From Romanomermis culicivorax (lineage: Eukaryota > Nematoda > Enoplea > Mermithida > Mermithidae), in assembly GCA_963922205.1 (NCBI GenBank), contig CAWUHX010000218.1, positions 558,001-622,000 on the forward strand: 64,000 nt of DNA, in the 5' to 3' direction. Each line of letters begins with the position of its first letter. The first letter of the stretch is position 1. The notes under the pieces are model-generated. The model was not told where the DNA came from and ran no database searches. It saw nothing but the letters and a program-made list of their open reading frames with translations. The position numbers and the translations under genes are program-made. Of the stretch, positions 16,901 through 62,760 are shown one piece after another.

Positions 16901-19900
16901 CTGTTGAACGGTTATTGTGCTTGTGTCCTGCGAAGAGAGATTATTTTCATTTCACGAATCATTAAAATAAGATGTACCATACATGGCCACGGTCAAAATT
17001 TTAGGGTAGGGAAAAATCCTAAAATTGACATATAGCAAATCATTTTTGTGACAATGATAAAAGTCAATTTTAGATGTGTTTGCTTTGCTTTTCGTATTTT
17101 TGGGATTATGTTGGTGATAAAAACTGGAAGCATTGTTTTTCTGAAATAAATAAATGAGCATGTTGATTGATGATAAAACCAAACGTTTCTAAGCAGCATC
17201 AAAAATGAAATTGATTCTTATTTTCCATCAGGAAGCTTTGAAAGTTTTGATGTATTGGCTCCTGAAAAGCTCCCTCAGAAAGAATCAGAAATCCTTTTAT
17301 ATGGCACTGATGCAATCAATGACTTGGCATTGAAATTTCAGCTTGATGCAGCTGCAACAGCAAGTGAGTGGACCCAGGCACTTCTTCAAATCATCAAACA
17401 GAGTGACTTTTGCCGCTTTCAGAAGACTACAGCTGTTACTTTCTGGCAGCATTTTCTAAAAAAAGACAGTGGCATTATCTGGGGAGAAAATATCAAGAAG
17501 CTGATCCATATTGTCCTGATTTTGCCTATTGGCAGTGCTGATGCCGAACGAGGCTTTTCAATAATGAACCATATACGCACATCAAGGCGATCAAGACTCG
17601 AAGGAATAAGCCTGGATGCTTTGATGCGCTTAAGAATAAATGGCCCAAATGATTTGGAACAGTTCAAAGCATCAAAATATGCAAAGGCATGGGTTGCAGA
17701 AAACCACATGCGCACTGATGACCCTCATAATCGAAAAAAGAAAACAAGAAAGGAAATGAAATTGGATGATACTGAAATGGAAGATGATGTGTATTTGCCA
17801 ACCAGTAACTTATTTTGATGTTCTCATACTTATTGTCAACCATATACTGTGCATTGCTTGCATCAGTTATTTTTTGTCAATGTATTTTTCTTTGTAATTT
17901 TTGTAATTTTGTCCAAAAATCGCCAGATAGCAAATGGTTACTCTAAAGTTTAGGGTAGGGATAATGTATACCCTATGTATACCCTGTGGCCATGTATGAG
18001 ATGTACAATATCTGTTAATTCTTTGTATATATAGCTCGACAAATTTACCAATCCTCATTATCAGACTAACCCATAGGGAGTATTAGGGCCGTGCACAAGG
18101 GGGACCGGGGAGGGGGGCGGCCGCCCCCCTTGAGGCAGCATGCAAACTGTGTATCGCGTAAAATCAAAATTTTCTAGGGCTATTCAGTTTAAAAAATTTA
18201 GTCCGCCCCCCCCATGAAAAAAAAAAAAACTACCTTAGTAAAAATAACTCAGAGGTCGAGCGAAATGGGAGAAAAATGACTTAGTAGTCAAAGAAATTTT
18301 TGGAAGTGTCATACTGATATGCCAATTTGAACGGACCAGATCAGAAACAAGACACGAAATTACCCGATCATTTTGTTGAACCTGGACCCGATATTCTTAA
18401 AATTTTGGACTCGGATCCGATATTCGTATAATTTTGAACTCGGACCCGATATTCTTAAAAATTTGGACTCGGACTCGATATTCTTAAAATTTTGGGCCCG
18501 GATCCGCACCCGATATGCTACTCGATATTAGAGATGCATGAGGTATCAGGACTCGAAACAAGATCTGAAAGTACCTGACCATTTTGTTGAACCCGGATCT
18601 GGACCCAAATCATATACGCACAGCATAGAAATTTTGCTGCGGGTCAGCCAGGAAAGAAGGTGGGATACAAATTTTTTTTCTCGTTCATGATAACGAAAAA
18701 AAGGTCTTAGATAAGTCTTCTAATATCCAAGCACCATATTCTTCTACTTATATTAGTTAGACTTGTGCAATTATTTGCTCAGACTGTTTAATGTTACTTT
18801 TTTGGAATCATGTATGCTTTGTCTAGAAAAATTGTCAAACTACAGCATAATTATCATTTTTATGACAACGTTCTGTACTCTCTTGCTCATTTTCTTTTGT
18901 CATCTTCTCAATCATTGCTGGGAAAGTCAAATCTGCTGGGGGTCAATCAAAGTCTGCTGGGGTCAAACCTCCTTTCACGTGCATGTATGACCGGAACCAT
19001 ACATGTAATTGGGGGAGTCCTATAGGCATACCTGTAAGACCTCCGACCAGTGGGGGGGGGGGGGGTAAATCCGAAATTCGGGGGGAGGCGGTCGAAAAAA
19101 GTCGAAATTTTTCCCAAAAAAGACCAAAAAACATACACTTTTTTGCAAATTTTTTCCAAACTGGGGGAGGGGGGTTGGGTGATGTTGGGTACATGGTTGG
19201 CCAAGTTGGGGGGGGGGTCCCCCAACCCCCTCCCACGTACAGGTCTATAGGAACCCTATCCCAGATATCGTTGGCTAACCATTGGGCGACCCTCCAGGAT
19301 TTTCCAACTCTATAGCTAGCCATATGGTAGTCATAGGGACCTACCGTACTTTTGGCCGGAAAAATACTAAAAAAATGTCAATTCTTAACAAAAAATCGTC
19401 AAAAACGTCAATTTTCTCTGCGCTTCGCGCCATGAACACATTTTTTACGGTTTCTTAAAACAAAAATTACTATTTTTAAACCGTTTTTGGACCTTTTCGT
19501 GAAAACATCGAATTCTTTTCCTTCAAAGACTCCTCCTTCCTAAAATTTTTGGGAATTAGTGGCCACAAAAATACAAGCAAAATCGTGTTTTTTAGCGTAG
19601 AAAAAAAATTCTTTAAAGATTGTTTGCGGATCTATGTACATGCAAACAGAGGCTCGCCTCGTAGGAAAAAACTATAGTGCGCAAAAGAAATGCACATTTT
19701 TTATAATATTTTTGACTTCCCATGCTTATGAAGTAACTGAGAGGAAGGATGAGAATTAAAGCTGTAGAGGGCGCAAAAGCTCACCGTATTGAGGGAACCA
19801 CTGAATCATTCACCATCTCCTGCGATGTGGCACAGCGAGCAAAAAAAAATTCGCGGTACAGAAGTAAGTACTAACCTTCATCATATGAGATTTGACCCCT

Positions 19901-30700: not shown

Positions 30701-31551
30701 TCTTTGCCGGCGCGGAGCGCCGGAAAAATTTGAGATTTTGACCATCTAAATTGCACCAAAATGCACCTTTTCATCAATGCCAGCAGTAGAAACGCCCAAA
30801 AAAATTTCCGTTCTGTGCGGAAAATGCCCAAAAATTTTTCCACACAGCCCAAAAAAAGTCCGCACTGTGCGGAAAAAAAACCCTGACCTTGCCTAATTCC
30901 TCTACTGATTTTAAAAGGGAATGTTTCATAACCATTGATCAATAAAGACGAAGTTGCGTATCCACTCTTGTATATTATTTTTATTCACCTTATGAATTTT
31001 GAACTAAAATTAAAATACTCTAGTGTTCGAAACACAAAATGCCATTCCATTATATCAAAAGCAGACACTTGATCCACTGAAAGTAAAATGCCAGTTAGAT
31101 CTTTCTCATTTACATAATTGATTACATTGTAAATGGCAGTCAAACCATCTCTAATGTCTCTTCCTTGGACTGCACATGTTTGACTTTGATGGACAATTTT
31201 AGGCATAACTTTTTTAAGACAATTAACTAGAATTTTTCCCAAAATTATATAGTCAACATCTAACATGGAAATTGGTCTCCAATCGCTTCTCTCAGTTTTG
31301 TCACTATCGTTTCCTTTATAAATTTGAGAGATGATACTGTGATACATGGACTGACAAAGTTTACCTTCTTTAAACATGGTCATGTAAACATTTTTAAAAA
31401 CAGGAACTAGTTGATCCAAAAATTTTAAGTAAAATTCTATTGGAAGACCATCGCTACCTGGAGACTTTCCCTTTTTAAAGGATTTTATAGCAAGTTTCAC
31501 TTCAGTTTCAGAGATGTCTTTTTCAAAATCTTGATTGTCACTAGTGATGGA
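27701..31551 (-). pseudogene. L1/Tx1-like LINE ORF2 (RT to C-terminus), split by a hAT element
   Basis: Minus strand. From 31551: GKSPGSDGLPIEFYLKF, SDWRPISMLDVDYIILGKIL and QTCAVQGRDI, all classic L1/Tx1 RT blocks. An in-frame TGA at 30987-30985 follows FSSKFIR, then FKISRGIRQG just before the insertion at 30893. After the insertion it resumes at 29027 with the remainder of the RQGCPLS block, and the catalytic YADD lies near 28895. The end (28177-27701) carries HRLLLTRSKINHMNN and a CKFC..H..C zinc-binding motif (zf-RVT). Several stops lie between 28200 and 28760. The 5' part with the endonuclease is absent, cut off by the hAT element at 31552. Confidence 0.9.
29028..30885. mobile_element. 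CAGGGTTTTTTTCCGCAC hAT-like element inside the LINE (1858 bp)
   Basis: Ends CAGGGTTTTTTTCCGCAC and GTGCGGAAAAAAAACCCTG are near-perfect inverted repeats. Perfect 8-bp duplication ACCTTGCC at 29020-29027 and 30886-30893. The LINE coding frame is continuous across the empty site. No transposase. The interior has GCGC hairpin motifs (29475, 29969, 30708), a CAAGCC-palindrome block (30060-30145) and a GGGTACCCGG patch. Confidence 0.96.
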
Positions 31552-32955
31552 CCGATGCATCGGCATCGGCCGATGCATCGGCCGATTGTTGCGTTTTTCT
31601 GGCGTCGGCCATTTTTACAGTTTCTGCCAAATCTTTTGCAGAAACTGTAAAAATCTATGAATCTAAAAACGCCTGTATTTCGGAAAAAAATAGCTGAAGA
31701 AAAGTAAGCCAGATTTTGTGGCTAAATTTTTTTGAAAAACATAAATTAAAGAATCGCTGATTAAGAATTTTACGCCACTCAATCCATATTTCGACTTTGC
31801 TGGATTGGGTTCATTGAAGGAGGAATTGTCGGGAAAAAAGAATCAATATTTTTATAGAAATGATAATCGAGCCCACTTTAAACCCATTGAAAACAATAGA
31901 CTTCATGCTTTGGCATCGTTACTAGATCCTCGATTTAAAAAGGATGGATTGAAATTTGAAATATAACACATATTGATCATACAAATCAAAATTAAATAAT
32001 TTAGGCTTTCTGTGATCTCTCCTTGTTTTGGAATAGTAGATTACTAGAATAAGGGAAGAAAAATTCTGAACTAGCTTTGGTTATAATGGTTATCGATCAA
32101 GAACAACAAAATCAACGCTTTTCTTAAAATATGGTACAAAAATTTGAATGAATCTTCAAACTCATTCTCCAAACTTTCTCAGTAAGCCACAATTAATAAT
32201 AATGTAAATAATTCAAGCATTTACATAAAACTGATCAATTTCAGGCACTATTTGGCCATTGCAAGTTCATCTGAAGATGAGCTGTAGCCCGAAAAATATG
32301 TAACGTCAACATTTGAGCAAGCAAAAGCCCTTGTTTTGGAATAGTAGATTACTAGAATAAGGGAAGAAAAATGCTACGACAAAACCAGAATTAGCCAATG
32401 TGAGTCAAAATAGTGTGCAATTGAAAATAAGTTTCATTATGAAAAAAATTTCTTTAGCTTGCCTTGAAATTTTCATCAGCTCCAATTGGGTCAGTAGCTA
32501 GTGAAAGATCATTTTAGAAAGCAAAAGATGTTAGAAGTGGAAAAAGATCCCGTTTATTGCTGAGATTGGATTCAATAGTGCAAACTGGAAAAACAAGCTG
32601 AAGTTGAAGAAGCTTCTAGTGAACTCAGCAATCAAAGTAAAGGTAGTTCAACATATGCCTTTGTTGATGACAAATTGGACGAATGAAATGTTGTTAATTA
32701 TTGAATGTTTAAAATATCAGTAGAACTTGGTGAATAATTCATAATAATTTCAAATTTATTACAGTTTAGCAACTTCCGGTCGCATTTTGTACATAATACA
32801 GCCGATGCATCGGCCCATGGCCGATGCCATCGGTGACCCTGGACCCTGGGCCAAAAATTTGCCATGCCATTGCCGATGCCATCGGTGACCCTGGACCCTG
32901 GGCCAAAAATTTGCCATCGGCCGATGGCAAATTTTTGGCCATTGGTCCATCACTA
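31552..32955 (+). mobile_element. Second copy of the CATCGGCCGATG hAT element (1404 bp)
   Basis: TAGTGATGGACCGATGCATC ... GGTCCATCACTA. The body 31626-32800 parallels 25536-26930, with several internal deletions. Flanks ATTGTCAC (31544-31551) and TATGCAAT (32956-32963) do not match, so no target-site duplication remains. The right subterminal region has a tandem duplication (32820-32935). Confidence 0.88.
31626..32690 (+). pseudogene. Decayed hAT transposase, paralogue of 25400-26810
   Basis: HALASLLDPRFKK is preserved here at 31910-31950 better than in the other copy (LLD rather than LRD). DQEQQNQRF and the SSELSNQS tail are also present. It is broken by stops and deletions and non-functional. 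Confidence 0.75.
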
Positions 32956-49170: not shown

Positions 49171-49174
49171 GGTA

Positions 49175-49774
49175 TGTCAGGGATGGACATAGTCTATCTC
49201 AAAGTTGTGAAGAAATAGCCGAAGTCGACGCGTTTTGCGTCGACGCCGATTTGCATAGACACCGTGCATAAATATGCCGGTCGTCTATGTTTTTGGTCAT
49301 TCAGTGATTATTGTTTGTTTTTTATTGAAAGAAAAATATCGGCGGCCCAGTAGGGCATAAATTTATATTATTTGTTATTTTATTTGTGGTGGAGCACGTC
49401 CGCCTAAAATACAACGACCCTCGGCCGATCGCCTGTGGATTACTCGCAGCGGAGGGAACGCAGGTTAGACCCCGGACTTCTGGAGAGCCACCCAGCGTGC
49501 AAGTCTACATTTACAACTCAGTTCTCGGCCTGACTTCTGATTTTGCCCCTGGTTTGAAGTTACTTGAGCTCAGGGTGTTATCATTTCTTCTGCAGTTCTT
49601 CGGGACGAAAGCAGGAGATCTTTGTTGATTTAGAGACTGACCGAACTGTTGCAATCTGATTCTACCTAAGGTTTCGGCCTGATTAGGTGAATTAGCTAGT
49701 GACTGATTAGGTCTATTTTTGGTATCAAATCCTTTCTTTATATTTCTCAATCTATCCCAAGTCTCATTTCAACA
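49175..49774 (+). repeat. 5' long terminal repeat
   Basis: It starts TGTCAGGGATGGAC and ends TCTCATTTCAACA. It matches 61962-62561 with a constant offset of 12,787. It contains a perfect 8-bp stem hairpin GTCGACGC-GTTTT-GCGTCGAC at 49224-49244 and a TATA-like GCATAAATATG at about 49267. A spurious 80-codon frame inside is present in both LTRs and is not called a gene. Confidence 0.96.
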
Positions 49775-49776
49775 AG

Positions 49777-49794
49777 TGGTGGCTTCTGACTCTC
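49777..49794 (+). other. Candidate primer binding site
   Basis: TGGTGGCTTCTGACTCTC begins 2 nt after the LTR end. Retrotransposon primer sites start with TGG, pairing with a tRNA 3' CCA. I could not assign the tRNA. A donor-like CAAA|GTAACG follows at 49797-49798. Confidence 0.5.
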
Positions 49795-49872: not shown

Positions 49873-52800
49873 ATGAATAAAGACAACCTAGGTGGCCTCA
49901 AGAGCTCCGGTTTGCCCCGAACACCACCGGGAAAAAAGGCCCGTGATGCAGAAAAGTTAATTGTCCTGACTTCAGCTGAAACTTCAGCTGAAGAGGACAA
50001 TTGCTCAGATCACCGGCCTTTATCGGTGGAAAATGAAGGCAATCGACCTACGACCTCGACAGCTGTCGAGAGGGAGGACGACGACGCGATATTATCGGCC
50101 AATGAAGATCAAATTTTCAAAATTCCGTCGTCGACCAACCTCCCCAAGAGAGGCGAATATTTACATCCGCCTATTATGGGACCGGCGCGTCCATTACCGA
50201 AGATGAACATTCCGGTTTTGGATCAACAGCAGCGCCGGCCAATTAATAAACCCGCCCAATTATTCGACACGTACCATCGATTATATTGGGACAATGAGCG
50301 GGAAGAACACCGCGAAATTCCTCGAAAGAGCTCACTGGAGGATAAATTGGACCAGATCATGAACAGGTTAGATGTTTATGATAGCATATTCGCCAACATT
50401 GCTAATACAGGTTCACAGAAAGCCACTAAGGCAAATGAACCGAGGCAAAGCAATGCTGGCTGTTTGGAACAAGGTGGTGCATTGAAGTTTGAGCAGGGCC
50501 AGGAAGAGTTAGCGTGGCAAAATGATGGCATCACTCTTCAGCAAGACTGTAGACGGAAAGACCAAAAGTCAAGTCTCGGTCCTAAAGAGCAGTATATGTC
50601 TCATTTGCCCACTACCTCAAAAGTGGAGCAGAGGGTGAGTAGTTGTGGTTTTGACGAAGGCCTAAAAAACCCAAGTCTGATAAATCCAACTATCTCACAG
50701 CAGAGCAGTTGTATTAGGGGAGAGACCCCAAGTGTCAGGCAGCAGGTCATGCCTACAATGATTCCGATTGATCCAGCTTTATGGGTCAATCCGGCTCAAG
50801 TAGGCCCAACTGTCTATGACATTGAAAGGGCGATCAAACCGAAATTACTGCAATCTGATATGCCAAGTAAACAGGTTCTTGCTTTTATAGTGGAGCTAGA
50901 AGGTGAGTTTCGAAAGAATACTCCCGATGAGGTGAAACTAGAAGCATTAACCCGTTTGTCAAGGGACTTGCCGAAAGAATTGGCCGAAGAGTCAACGACA
51001 TATAGGGAGGCCCGAGACAAGATTTTGAATTATTGTGCTCCAGATTGTAACCTGGACATGCTCAAACGGGATTTATTAGATATTAAGCAGGAACCCGATG
51101 AAGCAGCAACCAAATTTTTAAAAAGGGTTCGAGCACATGTGAATCTCGTTTATCAGAGTGAAACAAAAGAGTTTAAAAATAAAATAATCATTGAAACCTT
51201 TTTCTATAGGAGTTCTTTGACTTATCAATTAGAACTGCAGAAAGACATAGCAAAATTCAAAAATTGGTATGATCTTTCGCAGGCAGTCTATGAGATAGAG
51301 TTAAAGTACCGGAATGCGATTAGGACATTTGGGCCAAGAGAGCAGCCCATGATGATAAATACGGCACAAACGGAAATTGCTGAGGAGCAGCAAGCCGATG
51401 TGAATGTAATCCAAAGACCTTATGAAAGCGAACAAAAACGCAATAGGGACTTTAGAAGACCAAACACAGAAAGGCAAACTCCAATGCAATCTTCGCAAAA
51501 TCAATTGATAGATATAGCAGATGAGGAAGTACTTGAAGTACCTCCGCAGCAGGCCATAATGCCTCGGCAACAGCCTGTTGAGGAGCCAAAAAAGGACTCC
51601 CTCATGGTGGCTTTATCTAAGGAGTTTATCAAAATGGCACAATGTTATGAAGAGATTAGGAACTCGACCAAAGCTCAAGAGGAAGCCATAACTGCTTTAA
51701 CTCAGAAAGTTGATAAAGCGAAAGCGAAAAGTCAACAAGAGGTTCAGCAGCGAAAATGGTGTACTTACCACGAAAATAACACTCACAACACGATTGATTG
51801 TAGAACCTTGAATTTTTATAAAGGTCTGCAAAATCGTGGAAGGGGTGGAAATAGTGGAAGAGGCTTTGGAAGAGGAAGTCCTAGAGGAAGTTTTGGAAAT
51901 TTCCGAGGTAGAGGAAATTTCAGAGGTAATTTCAGAGGAAATTACGGAGGAAGTAGAGGAGGTTTTGGTAACGAAGGCGAAAGGGGAGCTTATCAAGTTT
52001 CGTTTCCTGATGACGAGGCGGAAAATTTGCAAGAATATGCCGAGTTTCAGGAATACGTAAAGTTGAAGAAGCTCAGGGAGCAAATGAGGTTGTTACAGGC
52101 TACCACCCAGCTGATGTTACCAGGACCAAATCTAATGGACCAACAACCAGTAATCGCAAATCAGAGTTCAAATACCCTGTTGGTTCCGCAAAAGGTAGTT
52201 AGTCCGTCGCAAGCCTCCGGGCAGACAGACCAACCGCCAAGTAGTGGTATCAATAGTGTACAGCAAGAGCCAATGATGGAGATGAAGTTGTGTGGTTTAC
52301 ATAATTGTGCCATGGAGAAAGAAGAAAATGTGCCAGAAATAGAATGCAGTGCCGAGTATGGTAGAAAGGCGACTGCAGAGGAACTGGATATGTTAGCAAA
52401 GTACCCTAGAACACAGCCATTTCACATTAAAGTAACTGTGTGTGCTACTACTGCAAAGGCACTGATTGACACGGGAGCTCAGTGTTCGGTGATGTCGGGT
52501 GATTTCTTGAAAAAATCACTTGGACTGGAGTATACAGCGTACCCTAAGATCCTAAAAGTCACTGTCGCCAATGGTAAAGTAGTTAGTGCACATGGTTACG
52601 TTCAATTTCAAATGCAATGTGATTATGGCCGTTTTCCAGTTAAAGCTATCATAATACCAGGGTCCGCAGAAGATTTGATATTGGGAACAGACTTCCTGGT
52701 GCATCCGGAAGTCAATACAGTAATAGATTTTGGAAAAGGTTCAATGACTATGATGGGTGTAAAGAAAAGTATTGATTTGCTAACATCTGATAAGAAAGCA

Positions 52801-55800
52801 ATTCCAATAGTGGGGATGCATAATCCGATGATAGCAGAATCAGTACAAGAAAATTCTATTGAAGAAGATCAATGTTCGACAATTGAGCAGCTGGAAGATC
52901 TAGTTCCAGTAGTGGCTTGTAATAGAATTTACATTCCACATGGAACAGATCAGCTAGTGAAAGCTAAATTGTGGAATAAATCCTCGGCAAATAGAATAAA
53001 TGGAATCATCGTCGAAGGAGATGATTCAGAAACGAGATTCAGAGTAGATGATACTATAGTTGATGGTTCAAAGGAGGACTTTGTATTGATGATCTCCAAT
53101 AATACGGGTTCCGGTTGCCTGATAGAACCTAATCAAGTTCTTGGCTACTGTAACTCCGTATTTCGGGGAGAATCAGGTGTATCAATTTTACAGGCAGGAA
53201 ATAGTGGAGAAAGTAGCCTAGAGGGCATTTTCGATGCCAAGGAATCAAAATTCGATGGAGTTGTGTTTCTGGAAGCATTGTACAAAATGACCTCTAAAGC
53301 TACAGTGTCAGAGGAACAGAAAGAGATGGCGATACGGCAACTCGTGAAATACCGGGATGTATTTAGCCTACCTCATGATCCTCTGACAACTACTCCCCAT
53401 CTTACGTGTAAAATTAATACAGGTGATGCTAGCCCTGTGGCGAAACATTACTACAGAGCTGCCATTGAACGTCGACCGTATATCAGACAACATGTGCAGG
53501 AAATGCTAGACAAAGGAGTCATAGAGCCATCAAGATCGCCCTGGGCGGCGCCATTATTCCTAGTAGGGAAGAAAGATGGGTCGCTCAGGCCGGTTGTTGA
53601 TTTCAGAGGCTTGAACGAGGTTACGAAGGATGATCGATATCCAATACCTAGAATGGATGATTATCTGGACTGCCTCGGGAGAGCAAAATTTTACACGACT
53701 CTTGACCTTAAGTCTGGCTATTGGCAAGTGCCAATGGAAGAAGGCAGTAAAGAAAAGACTGCTTTCCTGTGTCAAGAAGGGTTGTTTCAGTTCAAAGTAA
53801 TGCCCTTTGGACTGAAAAATGCACCAGCCGAGTTCCAGAGGATGATGGAGAGAATCCTTCATCCTCATGTGTGGAAGATATGTCTAGTTTACATAGACGA
53901 TATCATAGTGTTCTCGAATACGTTCAAGGAACACGTAGAAAATTTGAAATTGGTCCTAGATGCTCTGAGACGAGCCCAGCTTACACTTAAACCGGAAAAA
54001 TGCGAATTCCTACCAAAGAAGGTTCATTTTCTTGGTCACATTTTGGATTCTAATGGAATTTCGCCCGATCCGAAAAAAGTGCAAGCTATTAAGGAGTTTG
54101 AATTCCCGGACTCGGTCAAGCGTATGCAAAGGTTTCTCGGAATGCTCCAGTGGTGTAAAAAATTTATACCACATCTGGCAAAGCACGCAGAACCTTTGTA
54201 TAAGCTGACGGCCAAGAAAAGGAATAAATGGCTCGTCACAGAGGATCACTACAAAGCATTTAATGCTTTGAAAGAAGCACTGGTATCGGTTCCATTTCTT
54301 AGGTACCCAGTAATGGATGGCTCAGCCCAATTCATTCTACAAACCGATGCCAGTGGAACAGCACTAGGGGCTGTTCTGTATCAAGAGTCTGGAGACGATA
54401 AGTGGGTCATAGCATACAATAGCCGTGTGCTAAAAGAGGACGAGAAAAAGTGGTGCGCAACCGAAAGGGAGTGCCTCGCGATTATCTACGGCCTCAAAAT
54501 CTATCGGCACTATTTATTGGGGCAGAAAGTATTGATTAAGACAGATCACAGACCACTGTTATCAATGAAAGTCAACACTACAACAAATGACAAATTGAAA
54601 CGGTGGTATGCGATCATAAATCAATACAACCACAAGTTAGAATATGTGCCAGGTAGACAAAATGCTATGGCTGACTTTCTCTCTAGAAAGGATGAGCCAG
54701 AGGATGTGGTGAAATCACCACCGAAGTGGGAAAGTATGTTCAAGTCGGATGTTGTTTCCTCCGATGTCAAAGGAATAATAAAAGAACAACAAGAACAACA
54801 ACAAATTTCCTTGGAGGCCAAGAGGAACAACATCCCCGAAAAGAATAAATCCCACAAGGATAGAAAGGAAGAAGAGGGTGCTCGAAATAGTCCTGAGGAC
54901 GAAAGAGAGCATCCTAAAGGAGTAGAAGCGGTAGTAACCCGAAGCAAAGCTCGTGTTTCTGAAAAGGTGCAGAAAGAAAATCAGGAAACTGATAGATCTG
55001 CGATACCTAAGGAACAAGACAATGTGCAGTGGTTACACCCTAGAAAAGAAGAGGAGTTTGATAAACCAGGAACATCAGGAGGAGAAGAGATATCTATTGG
55101 CCTGATCCCAGATGACTTGATGAGCAAACTGCAAAAAGCAGACGAAAGCTTAAAGCCAATCTGGGATAGATTAGGTGCAAATAGCACCACGAAGTATCAC
55201 ACTGGGTTCTACGAAGAAAATGGTGTATTGTACAGGGAAACTGAGGCAGAAAGCGAAGACCAATTGGTCGTACCCGCAAACCTCAGGGACTCTGTACTGC
55301 ATCAGCATCATGGTGCTGTAATAATGACACACCAGGGTTTCAAAAGAACTCTGAGTGTCATGAAATTGCACTATTGGTGGCCTGGCATGGAAAAAGATGT
55401 CAGGGAATGGATAAAATACTGCGTTGTCTGTCAAATGGCAACTGCAGGAAAGCCATCCATTCCTCCGTTGATACCCATTGTGCCACAAGGTCCATTCGAC
55501 ATTGTATCTGTGGATATAGTAGGAATTTCGCCTTTGGGAGAAAGAATGCCTTATGTTATAGTTTTTCAGGACTATTTCACAAAATGGGTTGAAGCTGAAA
55601 TGATCCCAGATCAATCAGCAAATTCAGTTGTGAATGCGTTCTTAGAAGCTATAATATTTAGGCATGGAACACCAACGAAACTCCTAAGTGACAATGGATC
55701 TTGTTTTACTTCGGATTTAATGAAATCAGTTTGTCATTTATTAGAGTGTAAGAAGATCTTCACTACTGCTTACCACCCTCAGGGTAATGGTATGGTAGAG

Positions 55801-56424
55801 AGGTTCAACCAAACTCTAATAAAACAACTGAGAAAAGTAGCTATCGGTGAACCCGATAGCTGGCCAAGATATCTCAAATCAGTGGTCTTTGCCTACAATG
55901 CTACCCCACACGCAGTGACGAAGGCCTCGCCATTTGCGTTGTTACGGGGCCATGAGGCAAAGTTCGGGATGAATTTGTCAAAAGCCCTTAAAATAGTAAT
56001 GCCCATGAATTATGAGGCATACAAATTCATCCTAACAGACCACTTAACCAGGCTTTATAGTATTATTGCCGAAAATATCCAGAAAGCAGCGGAAGCTAGC
56101 AAAAGATATTTCGACAAGAAAATTAAAACCTCGGTTTTTAAAGAAAATGATTGGGTACTTCTTAAAGTTGATAAGCAAAAGAAACTAGGCTTAACTTGGG
56201 AAGGACCCTTCATTATAACTGATGTTTCCAGGTTAGAGGATAATGTCATAACAATCGCACGTTATGATAATCTTTTGCTACGGCAAAAGGTTTCAGCAAG
56301 TAGGCTGAAAATTTTTCGCTACGAGACTACACGATGGCAGAACTACGTAAAAAATCGATCGAATCGTCTTACTGTACCTTCGCATTTAGCGGAGAGTAGT
56401 GCGACGCCTGATGTAGTTTCGTAG
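49873..56424 (+). CDS. Gag-Pol polyprotein of Ty3/gypsy retrotransposon (2183 aa)
   Basis: A single uninterrupted frame encodes nucleocapsid and enzymes. Residues 1-620 are Gag-like, acidic at the start and with a capsid-like helical part. At about 629-645 there is a zinc knuckle of form C-x2-H-x4-H-x4-C (WCTYHENNTHNTIDC), a CHHC variant, followed by an RGG-rich tail to about 705. An aspartic protease follows with DTGA at about 866 and ILGTDF at about 937. Reverse transcriptase spans about 1200-1400 with LRPVVDFRGLN, PFGLKNAPAEF and catalytic YIDD near 1340. RNase H has TDAS near 1491, E near 1533 and TDHRPL near 1557. A charged Lys/Glu linker occupies about 1620-1740. Integrase has an HHCC region (about 1810-1853) and D-D35-E at about 1880, 1939 and 1976; WEGPF near the C-terminus resembles a GPY/F module. 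Gag and Pol are fused without frameshift or stop, so the ratio must be set another way. All catalytic motifs are intact. Confidence 0.95.
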   Translation: MNKDNLGGLKSSGLPRTPPGKKARDAEKLIVLTSAETSAEEDNCSDHRPLSVENEGNRPTTSTAVEREDDDAILSANEDQIFKIPSSTNLPKRGEYLHPPIMGPARPLPKMNIPVLDQQQRRPINKPAQLFDTYHRLYWDNEREEHREIPRKSSLEDKLDQIMNRLDVYDSIFANIANTGSQKATKANEPRQSNAGCLEQGGALKFEQGQEELAWQNDGITLQQDCRRKDQKSSLGPKEQYMSHLPTTSKVEQRVSSCGFDEGLKNPSLINPTISQQSSCIRGETPSVRQQVMPTMIPIDPALWVNPAQVGPTVYDIERAIKPKLLQSDMPSKQVLAFIVELEGEFRKNTPDEVKLEALTRLSRDLPKELAEESTTYREARDKILNYCAPDCNLDMLKRDLLDIKQEPDEAATKFLKRVRAHVNLVYQSETKEFKNKIIIETFFYRSSLTYQLELQKDIAKFKNWYDLSQAVYEIELKYRNAIRTFGPREQPMMINTAQTEIAEEQQADVNVIQRPYESEQKRNRDFRRPNTERQTPMQSSQNQLIDIADEEVLEVPPQQAIMPRQQPVEEPKKDSLMVALSKEFIKMAQCYEEIRNSTKAQEEAITALTQKVDKAKAKSQQEVQQRKWCTYHENNTHNTIDCRTLNFYKGLQNRGRGGNSGRGFGRGSPRGSFGNFRGRGNFRGNFRGNYGGSRGGFGNEGERGAYQVSFPDDEAENLQEYAEFQEYVKLKKLREQMRLLQATTQLMLPGPNLMDQQPVIANQSSNTLLVPQKVVSPSQASGQTDQPPSSGINSVQQEPMMEMKLCGLHNCAMEKEENVPEIECSAEYGRKATAEELDMLAKYPRTQPFHIKVTVCATTAKALIDTGAQCSVMSGDFLKKSLGLEYTAYPKILKVTVANGKVVSAHGYVQFQMQCDYGRFPVKAIIIPGSAEDLILGTDFLVHPEVNTVIDFGKGSMTMMGVKKSIDLLTSDKKAIPIVGMHNPMIAESVQENSIEEDQCSTIEQLEDLVPVVACNRIYIPHGTDQLVKAKLWNKSSANRINGIIVEGDDSETRFRVDDTIVDGSKEDFVLMISNNTGSGCLIEPNQVLGYCNSVFRGESGVSILQAGNSGESSLEGIFDAKESKFDGVVFLEALYKMTSKATVSEEQKEMAIRQLVKYRDVFSLPHDPLTTTPHLTCKINTGDASPVAKHYYRAAIERRPYIRQHVQEMLDKGVIEPSRSPWAAPLFLVGKKDGSLRPVVDFRGLNEVTKDDRYPIPRMDDYLDCLGRAKFYTTLDLKSGYWQVPMEEGSKEKTAFLCQEGLFQFKVMPFGLKNAPAEFQRMMERILHPHVWKICLVYIDDIIVFSNTFKEHVENLKLVLDALRRAQLTLKPEKCEFLPKKVHFLGHILDSNGISPDPKKVQAIKEFEFPDSVKRMQRFLGMLQWCKKFIPHLAKHAEPLYKLTAKKRNKWLVTEDHYKAFNALKEALVSVPFLRYPVMDGSAQFILQTDASGTALGAVLYQESGDDKWVIAYNSRVLKEDEKKWCATERECLAIIYGLKIYRHYLLGQKVLIKTDHRPLLSMKVNTTTNDKLKRWYAIINQYNHKLEYVPGRQNAMADFLSRKDEPEDVVKSPPKWESMFKSDVVSSDVKGIIKEQQEQQQISLEAKRNNIPEKNKSHKDRKEEEGARNSPEDEREHPKGVEAVVTRSKARVSEKVQKENQETDRSAIPKEQDNVQWLHPRKEEEFDKPGTSGGEEISIGLIPDDLMSKLQKADESLKPIWDRLGANSTTKYHTGFYEENGVLYRETEAESEDQLVVPANLRDSVLHQHHGAVIMTHQGFKRTLSVMKLHYWWPGMEKDVREWIKYCVVCQMATAGKPSIPPLIPIVPQGPFDIVSVDIVGISPLGERMPYVIVFQDYFTKWVEAEMIPDQSANSVVNAFLEAIIFRHGTPTKLLSDNGSCFTSDLMKSVCHLLECKKIFTTAYHPQGNGMVERFNQTLIKQLRKVAIGEPDSWPRYLKSVVFAYNATPHAVTKASPFALLRGHEAKFGMNLSKALKIVMPMNYEAYKFILTDHLTRLYSIIAENIQKAAEASKRYFDKKIKTSVFKENDWVLLKVDKQKKLGLTWEGPFIITDVSRLEDNVITIARYDNLLLRQKVSASRLKIFRYETTRWQNYVKNRSNRLTVPSHLAESSATPDVVS

Positions 56425-57616
56425 CGGCAAAATCTGCCGATTTGCGTGTGTTTATTGTGTATATTTAATAAATATTTATTTTAATTGTGTTTTGTAACGG
56501 TTGAAATCCGTTTTCATATTTTTTGAAATGTAGGATTGTGTTTTAACGAAGCGGGGGAAAAGCTTTTAAAGCGAAAGACCCGTTTTCGTACATTTTTTCA
56601 TTTTACACTTTCTTGGTTAACAACTCCAAATCATTCAAAAGTTTCAAAAGTTGTGTCCCGCGTCTGCTCTTCATTTTCAAATCTTTTCGAAAAATTGTGA
56701 ACGGAAGAACCCTCCCGTGAGGTAATTTGCAGCCGCAAGGGAATAGACTGAAAATGTTTTATACATCTGTCTACTTTTCACAGCTGCAGATTCGGTTTTA
56801 AAAATTTTAAAAATTATTTCGGTGCAAAGAATCGGGCCCACAAAATTTTCGAATGGGTACGCCGAACGATTGTACTCGGACGTACAACGCGACGGACGAT
56901 GAAGTCCAATTTGGGGAGCCGCACCCGCGGCAGAATAATCGCTATTTTTTGGTCGACGGTAAGCAACCATTTTATATTTGTAAATAGTTAGGTAAGAAAA
57001 TGAGCGGAGGTTACGCTCGTCAGGGGTGTTTTGTAAGACTGTTTCTGTGCCCTTTCTCGGACGAGCTACCAACTGGGAGTTGAGAATTTAACACAAAAAA
57101 TTAGGTAGAAGGGGGTGGCAAGGGCCGAACCTAGGTGATCCGAAAAAGACTTCGGTCGAATTAGGTGATCCGATTAGGGGAGGTTTTTGTCATTCCCGCT
57201 CCCTCTGGTTTCCGCAAAGCGTCGAAGAAGGGGATTAGCAGGAGTTAGTCGCGGAGATCAAGGTTGTGATCGATTAAGCGCTGATCGAGTAGCAAAGGTG
57301 CGTTGGGTTAGAGTGAAAAACACCTAATTTCACATATTTTTGCCTATCAATTTTGGTTTCTATAAAGGGACACCCAACGGCCAGAAAGGCTAAAAATCAA
57401 GTTCCCGCTCCAAAAATTTCAAAAGTTCAAAAGTCAAAACGGTGTTCTGCACAAAGGTGCTAGAGTTTCCCCAAAAAGTTAAAGGAGTAATAGTGGGTAA
57501 AATTACCCAAAGAGTGTAAAAAGGGTCACGAAAATGCACATAGGGAATTAGTAGAGTATGTCTGGCTAAAATTTAAATCTCTCCTGAATTTTTTAGACCA
57601 CAATATCCGTCGGGCA
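56425..57616 (+). other. Internal non-coding spacer of the retrotransposon
   Basis: No long frame on the plus strand. It contains a short repeat of TTAGGTGATCCGA-like units (about 57130-57175) and the pyrimidine-rich acceptor at its end. It may be the 3' UTR of gag-pol and/or an intron tail for ORF2. Confidence 0.6.
57575..57596 (+). promoter_or_regulatory. Strong 3' splice site before ORF2
   Basis: A pyrimidine-rich run ending in TTTTTTAG (AG at 57595-57596) lies 20 nt before the ORF2 ATG. With a donor such as CAAA|GTAACG in the leader (49797-49798) this would make a spliced subgenomic mRNA for ORF2, like env messages of some retroelements. The sites are seen; the use is inferred. Confidence 0.5.
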
Positions 57617-60600
57617 ATGCGGATAGCGGAGTTGGAAAGGTGGTTTTTTGCCACTTTTGAGTTCTGGCCGACCAACCCCATCGAGCCGATAATTGTTCCC
57701 ATGGGAAGTGTGGAAAGGGTGATAAAACACCTAGAAAGCAGCACTTTCCGAGGCATGAGCATTATCGGCTTCGATGTAGAGAAGGTGAACCGAGAGGACG
57801 CTGGAAAGCTGTTTAGGTGGGGGTGCGAAAACGAAAAAGGCAACCAGTTTGCCAGATTAGTTTCGTTCGCCCATCTAAATGGCAAAACGTTCGTAATCGA
57901 CTTAACGTTGCTGCAAGAGCAAGAGTGGAACATCTTGTTACATTTTTTACGCTCAGCGACGTTGTTAGTCGGTTACGCCGTTTTGGAAGATATAGTTTCA
58001 ATTATCAATGTCCGTGGATGCGGAAAAAGCACCGATGGTCGCGATTTGTCTGACGCGATTAGGTGTAGTATCAAAGATGGAAATCTAGGAAGATACTATG
58101 ACCTAAGCGTCACGGCAAAGCAGATCATGGGAAGCGAGATTACCAAATCCAGGAAAGCAGGTATCTGCCCTGAGACATTGAAATTGAAGGGACTTTTTGC
58201 CGAAATGTATTTGGCTGATATCGGTCCTCACCAGACTGATTTCAGTCTTTTACGTAATAGGCAAAATGTCGCCAAGGAAAGAGTTCCCGAAGAGATGCTG
58301 CAGTATGCTGGTATGGATGCATACTTTTCTTTGGCAATTTTTATGGGGGCATTTCACTATGGATACGTGATTGAGCTATGTGGGGGAGTTGCCAACTTTC
58401 CTCACGATATAGTCGATCCGTCCCAGATTGAAATACTTTCATATAAATTTTATCAGTTCTACTCATATATAGTTACGGACTACAAACTACGTAACTTTGT
58501 GGGTACACCTGATATTGTGGTTAGGCAGCCCGAGGCTACCTACCACATGATGCGCCAGGAAATGTATGCAAGGTGGGCCACGCAAGTGCAAGAAATAGGG
58601 CCTAAATTCCGTTGTCATAGGGATATCTGCAATCCTAGGAAGGGGAAAGAAAATTTGCCGTGGCGAGGCATTTATCCAAGTGCTTATCGCCAGGGTAAAA
58701 AATTAAAGCCCAATTCCTATGATGAAGCAAGCGATCCCGATGACGACGAAATGGTTAGACCTGAACAGTGCTTGTCGGCAAAGGATAAGTTGCGCCTGGA
58801 GTTGGTAGAGGATATGGCGCAAGGAAAGCAGTATCAGGAACTCACTCAACCAGCGTCTTTAGTTTGGTTCATCGATACAGCCAGGAAAGTTGTCAAGCTA
58901 CCCCAAGATCGTCAAAAGCAAGCACTACTAGATGCCCTAAAAAATCATCTGGTTCATGTGCCTATTGATATTGATCCTGGGGTAGGCTATTTTGACAAAG
59001 ATCACTGGAAGCCTCAGTTGGCGGAGTATGCTAAGGCATTCGAGGAAAAGCGGTTCTCGGAACTGCAAGCCGCTTGTGCCTTAGTCCCGCTGGCCTTTCA
59101 CGTGATCTGGCCCCACAGCAGAAAGGAACTGGACTTTGTAATGGCCGAAATGTTCAGTTACAGGTTCATTACATCGTTCAGCCCAGAGCTGCAGGGCAAA
59201 ATAAAAGAAATGGCTTGGCGGTCAGACGAAAGGCTGTCCCAATATCTTATGTTGGCGAAAACTCTTCCAAACATAGAGTATGAGGTACCCCGCAAAGGTG
59301 CCGGAATATATGTTTGGATGAATCGATTCGGATTTATGCCGATTCGATTAAGATTGTGGAAAAATGCTGATGTGTGCGCGCCGATCCCTGGCAGCCCTGA
59401 CACGATAACTACGGACAGTAAGAGCTATAGCTCAAATCCGTACTATTATGTTAGGTCTATTCGGCTCCAACGTGAACAAATGGAGGAAGAATTTGCAAAA
59501 AACGCGGCGATTTACAACGAAAAACTTCGCCAAATGTCAATTCAATTCGGACTCCAAAAAGACGATACCGCAGCGCCCGAATTGGAAACAAAAGTAGTCG
59601 TATTAGAGCCACCATCGCCAATGAAGGTAGACGACGATATGCCTTCCGATAAACTGGTTATTGACGAAACGAAAGCGGAAACGCCAGATTCGGAGATGAC
59701 GGAAAGTAGGGAGGTAATAGCGTTTTCTGCTGATGGGGGTGTTCCAGGTTTATACTCAGCCAAAGTCGTTCAAAGTATGAGAGAAAAGGGTTGGAACGAC
59801 GAGAAAATATTATTTATGGCTGAGAGGAAAAAGAAAATGAGAGTAAAGGAGAAGGAAAAGAGGAAGAAGGGTATTAAGGGAGCAAAAGTAGAAGCGAAAG
59901 AGGAAGAAAGTAAGACGGCGTCTTCGTCCGTCATATCGACCTCAACTCCTACGATTACCTCCACTACTACCCCCACTTCTCAAATTACTTCTACCTCAAC
60001 TGGAACACCATCATTGGCCACATCTTCAGTGGTCACTGCAACTCTGGATAGCACATCCACAACTAGTCAAGCTTCAGGCGCAATAGGCCTTGCGATGGGG
60101 AAACCGATGCCGAAAGGTCAGGCAAAACCCAGCAAGGACCAAAAACCAGGAGCGGCAGCTAGTCAAGTGCAAGTGGCTGGTCCCAGCAAAATTAAGCAGG
60201 CACAGGCTGCTCAGGTAACTGAAACGCCGGAAGTGACTGCGGAAAAATTCAAGGACAGTCTCTTGGACTTCTGGGATGTCTACCAACCAAAAGCCAGAGA
60301 AGCTGGCCCAATATCATTTTTTACGAGTGCAGTGGCCAAATATTTTGCTTTCGAGCAATTTGAGTCAGAAAGAGTTTTCTTCATGGTAAATGACGCCGTT
60401 AGGGAAATCTACCGGGGCTATGAACAACAGTTCAGAGTCCAGGGAGCGTTTCTCTATGATCGGACTAATTTACCTGAAGAACTCTGGGAGAGGGTCATGT
60501 ATGACTTTCTCCCCAGGTGGCTCAAGTCGGAGAGAGCACCTGATGCTTTTTCCTCGGTAAGGTATTTGGTTATGATGCTATTCCTCGTGTTGGAATGCGC

Positions 60601-61120
60601 CCCGCTATCCCCGATGCATATTGGAAACATTTATGCCAGGGCGATGGTGGCGGCGAATAACCGACTGTTGAGGGTGTATAATAACCACGATACCCCCTTG
60701 GAATATAAAACGGCCTTTCGATCTGTGATGCTTAGTAGCAATCACCAGGTCGGAGTGATGGGAGCCAAAAGAAGTGCCAGTTCAGACTTGCAAAGCTCTG
60801 TTAAGTTCAGTAAAGCTCAAGACGGAAAAACTGGCGCTACTTTGAAGGTTCCCGGACCTCAAGGTCAGGGTCAAGGCCAAGGAAACCAGGAAATAGCTCC
60901 GAGTACGCAAGGAAAGGTGCAAAAGACTGGTAACCGAGGCCGAGGCCAGTTTCAGTTCCACAACCCCAACCGGGGTGGTCGTGGAGCGGTGCGCGGCAGA
61001 GGTGCCGCGCCTCAGGTGCAAGGCAGAGGAGGCCAGCAGGGCCAGTGGGTATGGAGACCTTACGGAGGTCGTGGAGGAGCCCAGAGAGGGGCGCAAGGAG
61101 GCGGCGGGCCGCAACAGTAA
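57617..61120 (+). CDS. Retrotransposon ORF2: DEDDy 3'-5' exonuclease-like N-terminus with RGG-rich C-terminus (1167 aa)
   Basis: It lies 1192 bp after gag-pol, inside the same LTR pair and on the same strand. Residues about 20-245 carry the DnaQ-like exonuclease signature: motif I IIGFDVE (D53, E55), motif [12 protein letters not shown] (D125), motif [14 protein letters not shown] (Y230, D234). All five DEDDy residues are present, as in RNase D, WRN and Mut-7-type enzymes. Residues about 250-680 have no recognised domain. About 715-900 is Lys/Glu-rich, then Ser/Thr-rich, low-complexity sequence. About 880-1050 is a helical block of unknown fold. The last 70 residues are Arg-Gly-rich like an RNA-binding RGG tail, echoing the Gag tail. 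It sits where env would be, but I see no signal peptide or membrane segment. The role is unknown; possibilities are cDNA end processing, degrading host RNA or DNA, or counter-defence. Confidence 0.82.
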
Positions 61121-61961
61121 ATTAGCCGCATAAGTTTTGGCCAAAAAATATTGTTTTCGCATTTATTTTTCACAAAAAACACAAAATACAAAAAAATACA
61201 AAACCACAAAAATACAAAAAAAAAAAAATATAAAATACAAAATACAAAAAAAAAATCTTTCTTATTTGTTGCGTGCTTTAAATTTCTATTCGTTTTTCGT
61301 ACCTCGCATCGCCAAAAAACGGGCATGTATAAAAATTTATTTTTTCACTTAATCTCATTTAAATCTCGCCTTATTTTTTCTTTTTTTTATTTTTTGCTCA
61401 ATCGATACGCCCGGGAGATTTTGATTTTTTTTTTTTTGTGATATGCGTACTAATGTATATATTTTGTAAATTATTTAGATATTTTAGAAAATGTTTTTTG
61501 GCGAGGGCAACGTTGGAAAAAAGGCGGAGGCTTCACGGCGAAACACACAACCAGAAAGAGATAGACAGACAAATGTTCTGTCCCTGGCGTCCAGCGTAAA
61601 GCACGAAACGAAAGGCCACGGGATGGACGGCAACCGAAGACCCTCGGCCCTGGTGCAGGTCAAATTGGATTTCGGCGGTACGCCAACAAAATCAAGCCGA
61701 CGCGGAGTCGTCGATCCGTCGGCGTCCAGACCAAGAGGTAGCGCACCCGGACGGCCTTGTGGATATTCCGGTATGCCTGGTAAAAGACTTGACGTAAGAG
61801 GGTGGTCATTCGGAAAGCTTTCCGCAAGGGGGCATGAATGACCAAAAAGGTTCAGAAAACTGCTTTGACTGTATTAGGGCCTGAAAAGGTTCCAAAATTG
61901 TCATTGCGGCGTAATATGAATCTTTTTAACCTCCCGTTGGTCAGTTTCGAGGCTCGAGGGA
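61121..61961 (+). other. 3' internal region of the retrotransposon
   Basis: It starts with an A-rich stretch of ACAAAATACAAAA-like units (61170-61255). A 116-codon basic frame at 61491-61841 (ATG, Arg/Gly/Ser-rich) could be a small third protein, but nothing identifies it. It ends at the 3' LTR. Confidence 0.45.
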
Positions 61962-62561
61962 TGTCAGGGATGGACATAGTCTATCTCAAAGTTGTGAAGA
62001 AATAGCCGAAGTCGACGCGTTTTGCGTCGACGCCGATTTGCATAGACACCGTGCATAAATATGCCGGTCGTCTATGTTTTTGGTCATTCAGTGATTATTG
62101 TTTGTTTTTTATTGAAAGAAAAATATCGGCGGCCCAGTAGGGCATAAATTTATATTATTTGTTATTTTATTTGTGGTGGAGCACGTCCGCCTAAAATACA
62201 ACGACCCTCGGCCGATCGCCTGTGGATTACTCGCAGCGGAGGGAACGCAGGTTAGACCCCGGACTTCTGGAGAGCCACCCAGCGTGCAAGTCTACATTTA
62301 CAACTCAGTTCTCGGCCTGACTTCTGATTTTGCCCCTGGTTTGAAGTTACTTGAGCTCAGGGTGTTATCATTTCTTCTGCAGTTCTTCGGGACGAAAGCA
62401 GGAGATCTTTGTTGATTTAGAGACTGACCGAACTGTTGCAATCTGATTCTACCTAAGGTTTCGGCCTGATTAGGTGAATTAGCTAGTGACTGATTAGGTC
62501 TATTTTTGGTATCAAATCCTTTCTTTATATTTCTCAATCTATCCCAAGTCTCATTTCAACA
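61962..62561 (+). repeat. 3' long terminal repeat
   Basis: Apparently identical to the 5' LTR over 600 bp. The LTR is preceded by a short purine-rich stretch (GGCTCGAGGGA), a weak candidate polypurine tract. It is followed by GGTA, the target-site duplication, and then by a poly-G MITE fragment. Confidence 0.96.
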
Positions 62562-62760
62562 GGTACTTATATGGTTGGCCAAGTTTGGGGGGTACCTGCA
62601 AGTCCCCCACCAATTACAGGTATGCTTTTTGGCCAAGTCATACCTGTAATTGGGTGGGATGGGGGACCCCCATCGTCAACTTGGTCGAACCACGTACCCA
62701 AATATTGGGACCCCCATCCCCTACTCTGTCAACTGAGCCTAAAAAGTTAAATGTAAGTCA
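62562..62760. repeat. Poly-G MITE fragments flanking the LTR retrotransposon
   Basis: TGGTTGGCCAAGTTTGGGG ... CCAATTACAGGTATG (to 62624), followed by a second start CATACCTGTAATTGGGTGGG at 62639. The retrotransposon landed next to or inside this older MITE. Confidence 0.7.

What the first reader, a model, noticed from the sequence alone, without database searches (positions are those of the whole stretch)
57617..61120. DEDDy 3'-5' exonuclease ORF carried by a Ty3/gypsy-class retrotransposon
Seen: a 1167-codon frame inside an LTR pair, downstream of gag-pol, with D53/E55, D125 and Y230/D234 in the order and spacing of a DEDDy exonuclease, followed by a basic/low-complexity part and an RGG tail. 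Established: LTR retrotransposons normally carry gag, pol and sometimes env; DEDDy exonucleases trim RNA or DNA 3' ends (RNase D, WRN, Mut-7). Inference: the element acquired a nuclease that may help cDNA maturation, cut host transcripts or counter small-RNA silencing. I do not know this combination as a described group.
Basis: partly seen in the sequence, partly recalled or inferred. Interest (0 to 1): 0.9.

Follow-up and report, generated by a model that had tools for sequence, protein, structure and literature searches.

The report
Jumping genes carrying an RNA-trimming enzyme
In the genome of a mosquito-parasitic roundworm, several families of a virus-like jumping gene carry an extra gene for an enzyme that probably nibbles RNA or DNA from one end; such a combination was described before in bdelloid rotifers, and here it turns up in another animal phylum and looks long conserved.

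Summary
Confirmed and extended. The window is Romanomermis culicivorax (mermithid nematode), judged by assembly statistics. A Ty3/gypsy element with identical 600-bp LTRs carries gag-pol and a second ORF (57617-61120) whose first ~265 residues are a diverged DEDDy 3'-5' exonuclease. Pfam is weak for this copy (18.3 bits, cut-off 23.6), but a 25%-identical ORF behind the pol of a sister element scores 31.8. Five families share pol followed by this ORF (one place checked in each); D53, E55, D125, Y230 and D234 are invariant in 12 of 12 exo sequences. At least 37 family-A copies exist; exo-domain pN/pS is 0.03. The window copy lacks 190 codons that 20 of 20 other fetched copies have. A separate LTR lineage (B) carries another DEDDy ORF.

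'Not described' is wrong: DEDDy ORF3s are published in bdelloid rotifer LTR retrotransposons and Terminons (Rodriguez 2017). Seven paper searches listed no nematode report. Structure prediction failed. Most likely it is an active accessory exonuclease anchored to RNA by its RGG tail; its target (silencing RNAs or the element's own nucleic acid) is inferred only.

The parts
49171..49174 (.). Target-site duplication GGTA, left copy
   Evidence: 5' flank ends GGTA; 3' flank begins GGTA
49175..49774 (+). 5' LTR, 600 bp, TG...CA
   Evidence: 600/600 identical to 61962-62561
49777..49794 (+). Putative primer-binding site (TGGTGGCTTCTGACTC...), two bases after the LTR
   Evidence: sequence shown; the tRNA was not identified; inference
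49873..56424 (+). gag-pol, one frame of 2183 aa: gag without a CCHC match but with RGG clusters (residues 656-695), protease 852-943, RT 1232-1391, RNase H 1456-1585, integrase 1800-1969
   Evidence: ORF; Pfam; no CCHC pattern; RGG positions
57590..57596 (+). Putative 3' splice site TTTTTAG just upstream of the ORF2 start (subgenomic mRNA?)
   Evidence: sequence; the database gene model P0001 joins pol-linker sequence to the ORF2 N terminus about here; inference, no RNA data
57617..61120 (+). ORF2, 1167 aa in this copy (deletion form of a 1357-aa protein)
57740..58411 (+). DEDDy 3'-5' exonuclease domain, ORF2 residues about 42-265; catalytic codons D53 57773-57775, E55 57779-57781, D125 57989-57991, Y230 58304-58306, D234 58316-58318
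59455..59456 (+). Junction (within a few bases) of the in-frame deletion: 190 codons, residues 614-803 of the 1357-aa form, are absent here
60932..61117 (+). RGG-rich C-terminal tail of ORF2
   Evidence: nine RG dipeptides in the tail of the long form
61950..61961 (+). Polypurine tract AGGCTCGAGGGA
   Evidence: the same 12 bases stand before the 3' LTR in 20 of 20 other copies
61962..62561 (+). 3' LTR, 600 bp
62562..62565 (.). Target-site duplication GGTA, right copy

Best explanation
The feature is an accessory gene of a nematode Ty3/gypsy clade: a stand-alone, probably catalytically active DEDDy 3'-5' exonuclease (RNase D / WRN / Mut-7 / EXD2 superfamily) with a long C-terminal part, of which residues 614-803 evolve fast, and an RGG tail that should bind RNA. 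It is probably translated from a spliced subgenomic mRNA (inferred). It was there before the five families split and has been inherited with pol since. Mechanism I commit to: ORF2 binds RNA through the RGG tail and trims 3' ends in trans, most likely degrading or shortening the Dicer/RdRP-type siRNAs (or their precursors) that silence transposons in this Piwi-less nematode. Shown: the ORF, its place, copy number, invariant catalytic residues, purifying selection, linkage with pol. Inferred: catalysis, RNA as substrate, the siRNA target. The confidence of 0.8 is for an accessory, probably active DEDDy exonuclease; the siRNA target has about 0.4, the element's own RNA or cDNA about 0.35.
For: ORF2 follows pol in 5 of 5 families checked, one place each: A (window), C (L066), D, E, F (L086, L085, L084). 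Exo identity to A is 20-44%, yet D53, E55, D125, Y230, D234 are invariant in 12 of 12 sequences and lie among 24 invariant of 223 columns for five family representatives (P about 1e-5 if columns were drawn at random). Family C scores PF01612 31.8 bits, E=1.5e-7 and matches the window domain at BLASTP E=1e-15; 7 of 13 aligned members hit PF01612 at E<=0.1; profile comparison with family B, itself PF01612 E=2.4e-11, is colinear over exo I-III, E=1e-4, probability 57. pN/pS 0.027 in the exo domain against 0.27 in residues 614-803. Integrase and exo identities rank the families alike, exo being faster: 76/72/54/45% against 44/41/25/23%. Gag and ORF2 both carry RGG boxes. Host context, PMC4323106 (passages): R. 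culicivorax lacks PRG-1/Piwi and shows no 5'-triphosphate siRNAs; HENN-1, which protects small-RNA 3' ends, is lost outside clade V; in T. spiralis (clade I) transposon siRNAs are Dicer products and DNA methylation marks LTR elements; methylation machinery is reported for R. culicivorax.
Against: No biochemical, RNA or small-RNA data. AlphaFold2 gave no usable model (pLDDT 36-37). The window sequence stays below Pfam's cut-off, 6 of 13 aligned members do not hit PF01612 at E<=0.1, and none of the 37 family-A places or 15 D/E/F-type places is among the 80 listed in the PF01612 genome search. The profile against solved structures gave only EXD2 at E=0.09 and Mut-7 at 0.41 among four hits; an earlier, smaller profile gave none of this superfamily, and its comparison with family B had probability 2. 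No sign of an arms race in the exo domain within family A. The window insertion has identical LTRs although its ORF2 lacks 190 codons, so that part is dispensable or supplied in trans.
Confidence: 0.8

Rival explanations
1. ORF2 is an active exonuclease that works inside the element's own particle: it trims the 3' end of genomic RNA, removes untemplated or mismatched 3' ends of the growing cDNA (proofreading), or prepares cDNA ends for integration.
For: Same catalytic conservation; RGG boxes in both gag and ORF2 could bring both to the same RNA; the element is long, 13.4 kb from LTR to LTR; Rodriguez 2017 proposes 3'-end processing of element RNAs (passages); nidoviruses use a DEDD ExoN for proofreading (abstract).
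Against: ORF2 is a separate ORF outside gag-pol, so packaging in fixed ratio is not built in; exo diverges faster than integrase; LTR elements in general do without it (general knowledge).
Confidence: 0.35
2. The domain binds RNA but no longer cuts, like Maelstrom or EXD1, and serves as an RNA chaperone or export factor (compare CERV of Cer1).
For: RGG tail; Cer1 in C. elegans encodes the extra protein CERV, from a spliced mRNA, needed for genomic RNA export (abstract); Rodriguez 2017 cites Maelstrom and EXD1 as inactive DEDD derivatives that keep RNA binding.
Against: All five catalytic residues invariant across families that share only 20-44%; inactive relatives usually lose them (recalled).
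Confidence: 0.1
3. ORF2 is an env-like protein, and the exonuclease likeness is accidental.
For: Position downstream of pol is that of env; one weak hydrophobic stretch near the C terminus (19-residue hydropathy 1.79 at residue 1174 of the long form, just over the customary 1.6).
Against: No Pfam match to an env; the only relevant match is PF01612; the second most hydrophobic region (1.66) is the exo core itself; family C lies above the PF01612 cut-off. Only a crude hydropathy scan was done, no signal-peptide or membrane predictor.
Confidence: 0.04
4. Families A-F and family B took their exonucleases separately, from a shared pool of retroelement DEDDy ORFs as proposed for rotifers (origin, not function; compatible with the readings above).
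For: Family B is a different LTR lineage with its own DEDDy ORF; the integrase tree puts A, C, D, E, F in one clade (100/100) and B in another (100/100).
Against: One clade of A-F plus B is not rejected (p-AU 0.289); no common exo tree of A-F and B was built.
Confidence: 0.5

Closest known systems
DEDDy ORF3 of bdelloid rotifer LTR retrotransposons Juno and Vesta (Rodriguez et al. 2017, PMC5408684; abstract and passages seen)
   Same: LTR retrotransposon with a DEDDy exonuclease ORF after pol; more than one lineage in one genome; proposed roles overlap
   Different: Nematode host; no dUTPase match in pol; D/E/D/D with Tyr here, while the paper says the motif is changed to DEED; 1357-aa ORF with RGG tail; gag without CCHC pattern. 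Direct sequence comparison was not possible (rotifer sequences not retrieved)
DEDDy ORFs of Athena Terminons (PMC5408684, PMC6431247; passages seen)
   Same: Retroelement-borne DEDDy exonuclease
   Different: Penelope-like elements of bdelloid telomeres, not LTR retrotransposons
Cellular RNase D / WRN exo / Mut-7 / EXD2 / Rrp6 (PF01612)
   Same: Motifs exo I-III with YxxxD; family B hits WRN, Mut-7 and Rrp6 chains
   Different: Window domain very diverged and element-borne
CERV of Cer1, C. elegans (PMC10309623; abstract seen)
   Same: Nematode LTR retrotransposon with an extra protein, there from a spliced mRNA
   Different: The abstract does not describe CERV as a nuclease
ExoN of nidoviruses and arenaviruses (PMC7968707; abstract seen)
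   Same: 3'-5' exonuclease domain captured by a mobile replicon; proofreading or immune suppression
   Different: RNA viruses; DEDDh/DEEDh type (recalled)

Membership tests
DEDDy 3'-5' exonuclease (PF01612, DnaQ-like) | DxE (exo I), D (exo II), YxxxD (exo III) in order | tested here: met
   D53, E55, D125, Y230, D234; invariant in 21 of 21 family-A copies and 12 of 12 exo sequences of five families
DEDDy 3'-5' exonuclease (PF01612, DnaQ-like) | Profile score over the curated cut-off | tested here: inconclusive
   window 18.3 bits under 23.6; family C 31.8 and family B 44.2 bits over it; 7 of 13 members at E<=0.1
DEDDy 3'-5' exonuclease (PF01612, DnaQ-like) | DnaQ-like fold with the acidic residues together | tested here: inconclusive
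   AlphaFold2 pLDDT 36 and 37, unusable
DEDDy 3'-5' exonuclease (PF01612, DnaQ-like) | 3'-5' hydrolytic activity | not testable with these tools
   bench assay needed
Ty3/gypsy LTR retrotransposon | LTR pair, short target duplication | tested here: met
   600/600 identical LTRs, GGTA
Ty3/gypsy LTR retrotransposon | PR-RT-RNaseH-IN order in pol | tested here: met
Ty3/gypsy LTR retrotransposon | Dispersed multicopy | tested here: met
   37 places scored out of 4658 first-look candidates, a lower bound
Bdelloid-type DEDDy-ORF3 LTR retrotransposon (Juno/Vesta) | DEDDy ORF between pol and 3' LTR | tested here: met
   window. For families C, D, E, F only the pol side was seen, their LTRs were not
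Bdelloid-type DEDDy-ORF3 LTR retrotransposon (Juno/Vesta) | dUTPase in pol (three of four rotifer lineages) | tested here: not met
   no dUTPase among Pfam matches of gag-pol at E<=1
Bdelloid-type DEDDy-ORF3 LTR retrotransposon (Juno/Vesta) | Common descent of the ORF with the rotifer ORF3s | not tested
   rotifer ORF3 sequences were not fetched; the protein searches returned four entries, three named R. culicivorax and one unnamed
Env-carrying element (errantivirus-like) | Transmembrane fusion protein after pol | tested here: inconclusive
   one weak hydrophobic stretch (1.79) by a crude scan; no env Pfam match

The most novel reading that the evidence does not exclude
Retroelements of two distant animal phyla use exonuclease ORFs of one functional kind as anti-silencing weapons: in a nematode that has lost Piwi and the small-RNA 3'-end protector HENN-1, two LTR lineages each keep a DEDDy enzyme that eats the unprotected 3' ends of the host's siRNAs.
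Probability: 0.25. Interest if true: 0.85.

Novelty: new variant of a known kind. Interest (0 to 1): 0.6.

Why it matters
It moves retrotransposon-borne DEDDy exonucleases from a bdelloid curiosity to a trait found in a second phylum, in at least five families of one clade plus a second lineage in one genome, with invariant catalytic residues and strong purifying selection. That makes the open question of what a retrotransposon does with a 3'-5' exonuclease testable: young, mostly uninterrupted copies in a host with a Piwi-less silencing system.

Tried and rejected
Structure prediction of the exo domain, alone and with three database fragments, gave pLDDT 36-37; no fold search was run on such models. 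Protein search of the whole ORF2 found one entry, an R. culicivorax 'myosin' gene model that holds pol-linker and ORF2 N-terminal pieces; the 300-residue search found three, two named R. culicivorax and one unnamed. In the 120 rows listed (of 188) for pol relatives I saw no PF01612 annotation; a separate ORF2 would not show there. Viral contigs, genome contigs (102) and phages (53) gave no relative. Env reading: disfavoured, not excluded. One recent capture: rejected by families C-F. Whether some elements of the clade lack ORF2 could not be tested: the integrase search of the genome never got an answer. Ustyantsev 2017, cited by PMC6338049 beside Rodriguez 2017, holds no word 'exonuclease' or 'DnaQ'.
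Full report
WHAT IS THERE. The 1167-codon frame 57617-61120 is real. It sits inside an LTR element: LTRs 49175-49774 and 61962-62561 are identical over 600 of 600 bases, start TG, end CA, flanked by GGTA on both sides; polypurine tract AGGCTCGAGGGA. [quoted passage not shown] Gag shows no CCHC pattern but RGG clusters; ORF2 has an RGG tail as well.

WHOSE GENOME. The window is G000:C218:558001-622000 of an assembly of 359,112,060 bases in 595 contigs. PMC10879605 lists Romanomermis culicivorax v2 as 359.1 Mb, 595 scaffolds (passages). The protein hits that bear a species name are also R. culicivorax.

COPIES. The own-genome search scored 37 of 4658 candidates; all 37 are copies of this ORF2 (window included; the other matched stretches are 93-99% identical), and 33 of 37 have no stop in the matched parts. 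The count is a lower bound. Of 20 further copies fetched, 19 have an ORF2 of 1357 aa and one is cut 19 aa short by a TAG; the window copy lacks residues 614-803 of the long form, in frame. All 20 have the polypurine tract and 19 a full 3' LTR, 94-99% like the window's; in the 20th 169 of 600 bases match. The identical LTRs of the window copy point to a recent insertion in spite of its deletion; the missing 190 residues are therefore dispensable or supplied in trans (inference).

SELECTION. Over 21 sequences pN/pS is 0.027 in residues 20-250 (35 synonymous, 6 non-synonymous variant codons), 0.050 in 251-613, 0.27 in 614-803, 0.14 in 804-1100, 0.067 in 1101-1357, 0.083 overall; the DEDDy residues are invariant in 21 of 21. 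Pol of the copies was not fetched, so there is no pol baseline.

IS IT A DEDDY EXONUCLEASE? Alone, the evidence is modest: PF01612 at E=0.036 (whole protein) and 0.0021 (residues 1-266), under the curated cut-off, and no significant solved structure. Sister families settle it. A PF01612 search of the genome gave 80 matches at E<=1e-3 (119 candidates scored); no family-A place is in that list. I read 29 of the 80: 22 are family B (16, L063, four, and C69), six are family C (four, two) and one is a host-like exon; the sorting is by eye. Family C at G000:C130 has RT/RNase H 51% and integrase 45% identical to the window's, followed by an ORF 25% identical to the window's exo domain (tblastn 8e-14; BLASTP 1e-15) that scores PF01612 at 31.8 bits. 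A genome search with that ORF gave 136 match stretches (132 of 2325 candidates scored). Fifteen lie at 23-30% identity, 14 of them without stops, in open frames of 355-1445 aa; most of the other 121 stretches, 34-100% identical, have stops inside. I fetched 10 of those 15: they form families D (5), E (1) and F (4). With A and C that is 12 exo sequences in five families; 20 columns are invariant, among them D53, E55, D125, Y230 and D234. With one representative each, 24 of 223 columns are invariant, and the chance that five named columns all lie among them is about 1e-5. Seven of 13 aligned members (the 12 and P0122) hit PF01612 at E<=0.1, six do not. Profile comparison with family B is colinear through exo I, II and III (E=1e-4, probability 57), although an earlier, smaller alignment gave probability 2. 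Against solved structures the profile gave EXD2 at 0.09 and Mut-7 at 0.41 among four weak hits, two of them unrelated; the smaller profile gave two unrelated ones. Two AlphaFold2 runs failed, so the fold is not shown.

LINKAGE WITH POL. Upstream stretches of one D, one E and one F place hold pol 41%, 74% and 67% identical to the window's over 579, 351 and 379 aa. So pol followed by the exo ORF holds for 5 of 5 families checked, one place each; LTRs were seen only for A (and B). Integrases of A, C, D, E, F form one clade (100/100) among 38 rows. Integrase identities to A are 76 (E), 72 (F), 54 (D), 45 (C); exo identities 44, 41, 25, 23; both trees group A, E and F apart from C and D (the exo tree has long branches and only two firm forks). 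I read this as one old acquisition inherited with pol. Whether clade members without ORF2 exist was not tested.

A SECOND LINEAGE. At G000:C69 an LTR pair (620 bp, 99.8%) encloses a frame that reads as CCHC-gag, RNase H and integrase, and a DEDDy ORF of about 600 aa; this copy appears to lack the RT (read by eye, not tested). The first 319 codons of the ORF match PF01612 at 44.2 bits and WRN, Mut-7 and Rrp6 chains at E 0.0006-0.04. A diverged member lies at C229. The integrases of B form a separate clade (100/100), but a common clade with A-F is not rejected (p-AU 0.289), so one or two acquisitions remain open.

WHAT IS KNOWN. Rodriguez et al. 2017 (PMC5408684; abstract and passages) describe DEDDy ORF3s in Juno and Vesta, acquired at least twice, and in Athena Terminons, and discuss 3'-end processing and silencing. 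PMC6431247 (passages) repeats this for Terminons, and PMC6338049 (passages) calls the DnaQ-like exonuclease a well-known accessory domain of LTR transposons, citing Novikova 2008 (not seen), Rodriguez 2017 and Ustyantsev 2017; a word search of the last found no exonuclease. Seven paper searches listed no title or abstract start reporting such an ORF in a nematode LTR element; some searches showed 20 of 30, 20 of 4,127 and 20 of 30 papers, and the library lacks most subscription journals. I file it as a new variant of a known kind: other phylum, other gag and ORF anatomy, no dUTPase match, five families.

HOW IT MAY WORK. Shown: conserved catalytic residues, purifying selection, linkage to pol. 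Inferred: catalysis; RNA binding by the RGG tail; expression from a spliced mRNA (TTTTTAG at 57590-57596; the gene model P0001 joins about there). For the target I lean to silencing RNAs: PMC4323106 (passages) reports no PRG-1/Piwi and no 5'-triphosphate siRNAs in R. culicivorax, loss of the 3'-end protector HENN-1 outside clade V, and Dicer-made transposon siRNAs with DNA methylation in the clade I species T. spiralis. I did not check HENN-1 in this genome myself. Against it stand the absence of any direct data and the lack of signs of an arms race. Action on the element's own RNA or cDNA is nearly as likely.

Noticed in passing
L041:4526 to L042 about 2050 (G000:C69): A second LTR retrotransposon lineage (family B) with its own stronger DEDDy ORF; 22 of 29 PF01612 places read in this genome are of this family.
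   Followed up: partly
L042:3783-5999: A gag similar by eye to the window's gag, just outside the family-B LTR pair, so a further clade member may lie there.
   Followed up: no
L070 (G000:C116:280135-280257): A single exon that looks by eye like a host Mut-7/WRN-type exonuclease; the only host-like one of 29 places read.
   Followed up: no
L067:3770-5500 (-): A 577-aa open frame, cut by the end of the stretch, of unknown kind, about 4 kb beyond the family C exo ORF.
   Followed up: no
G000:C158:182213, 187991, 193769: Three exo fragments spaced exactly 5778 bases apart, which suggests a tandem array; the first was read and is family B.
   Followed up: no
window 30985-31578 (-), 5654-6187 (+), 17255-17818 (+): Short frames that look, from memory, like non-LTR reverse transcriptase pieces and a hAT transposase C terminus; ordinary repeat debris.
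   Followed up: no
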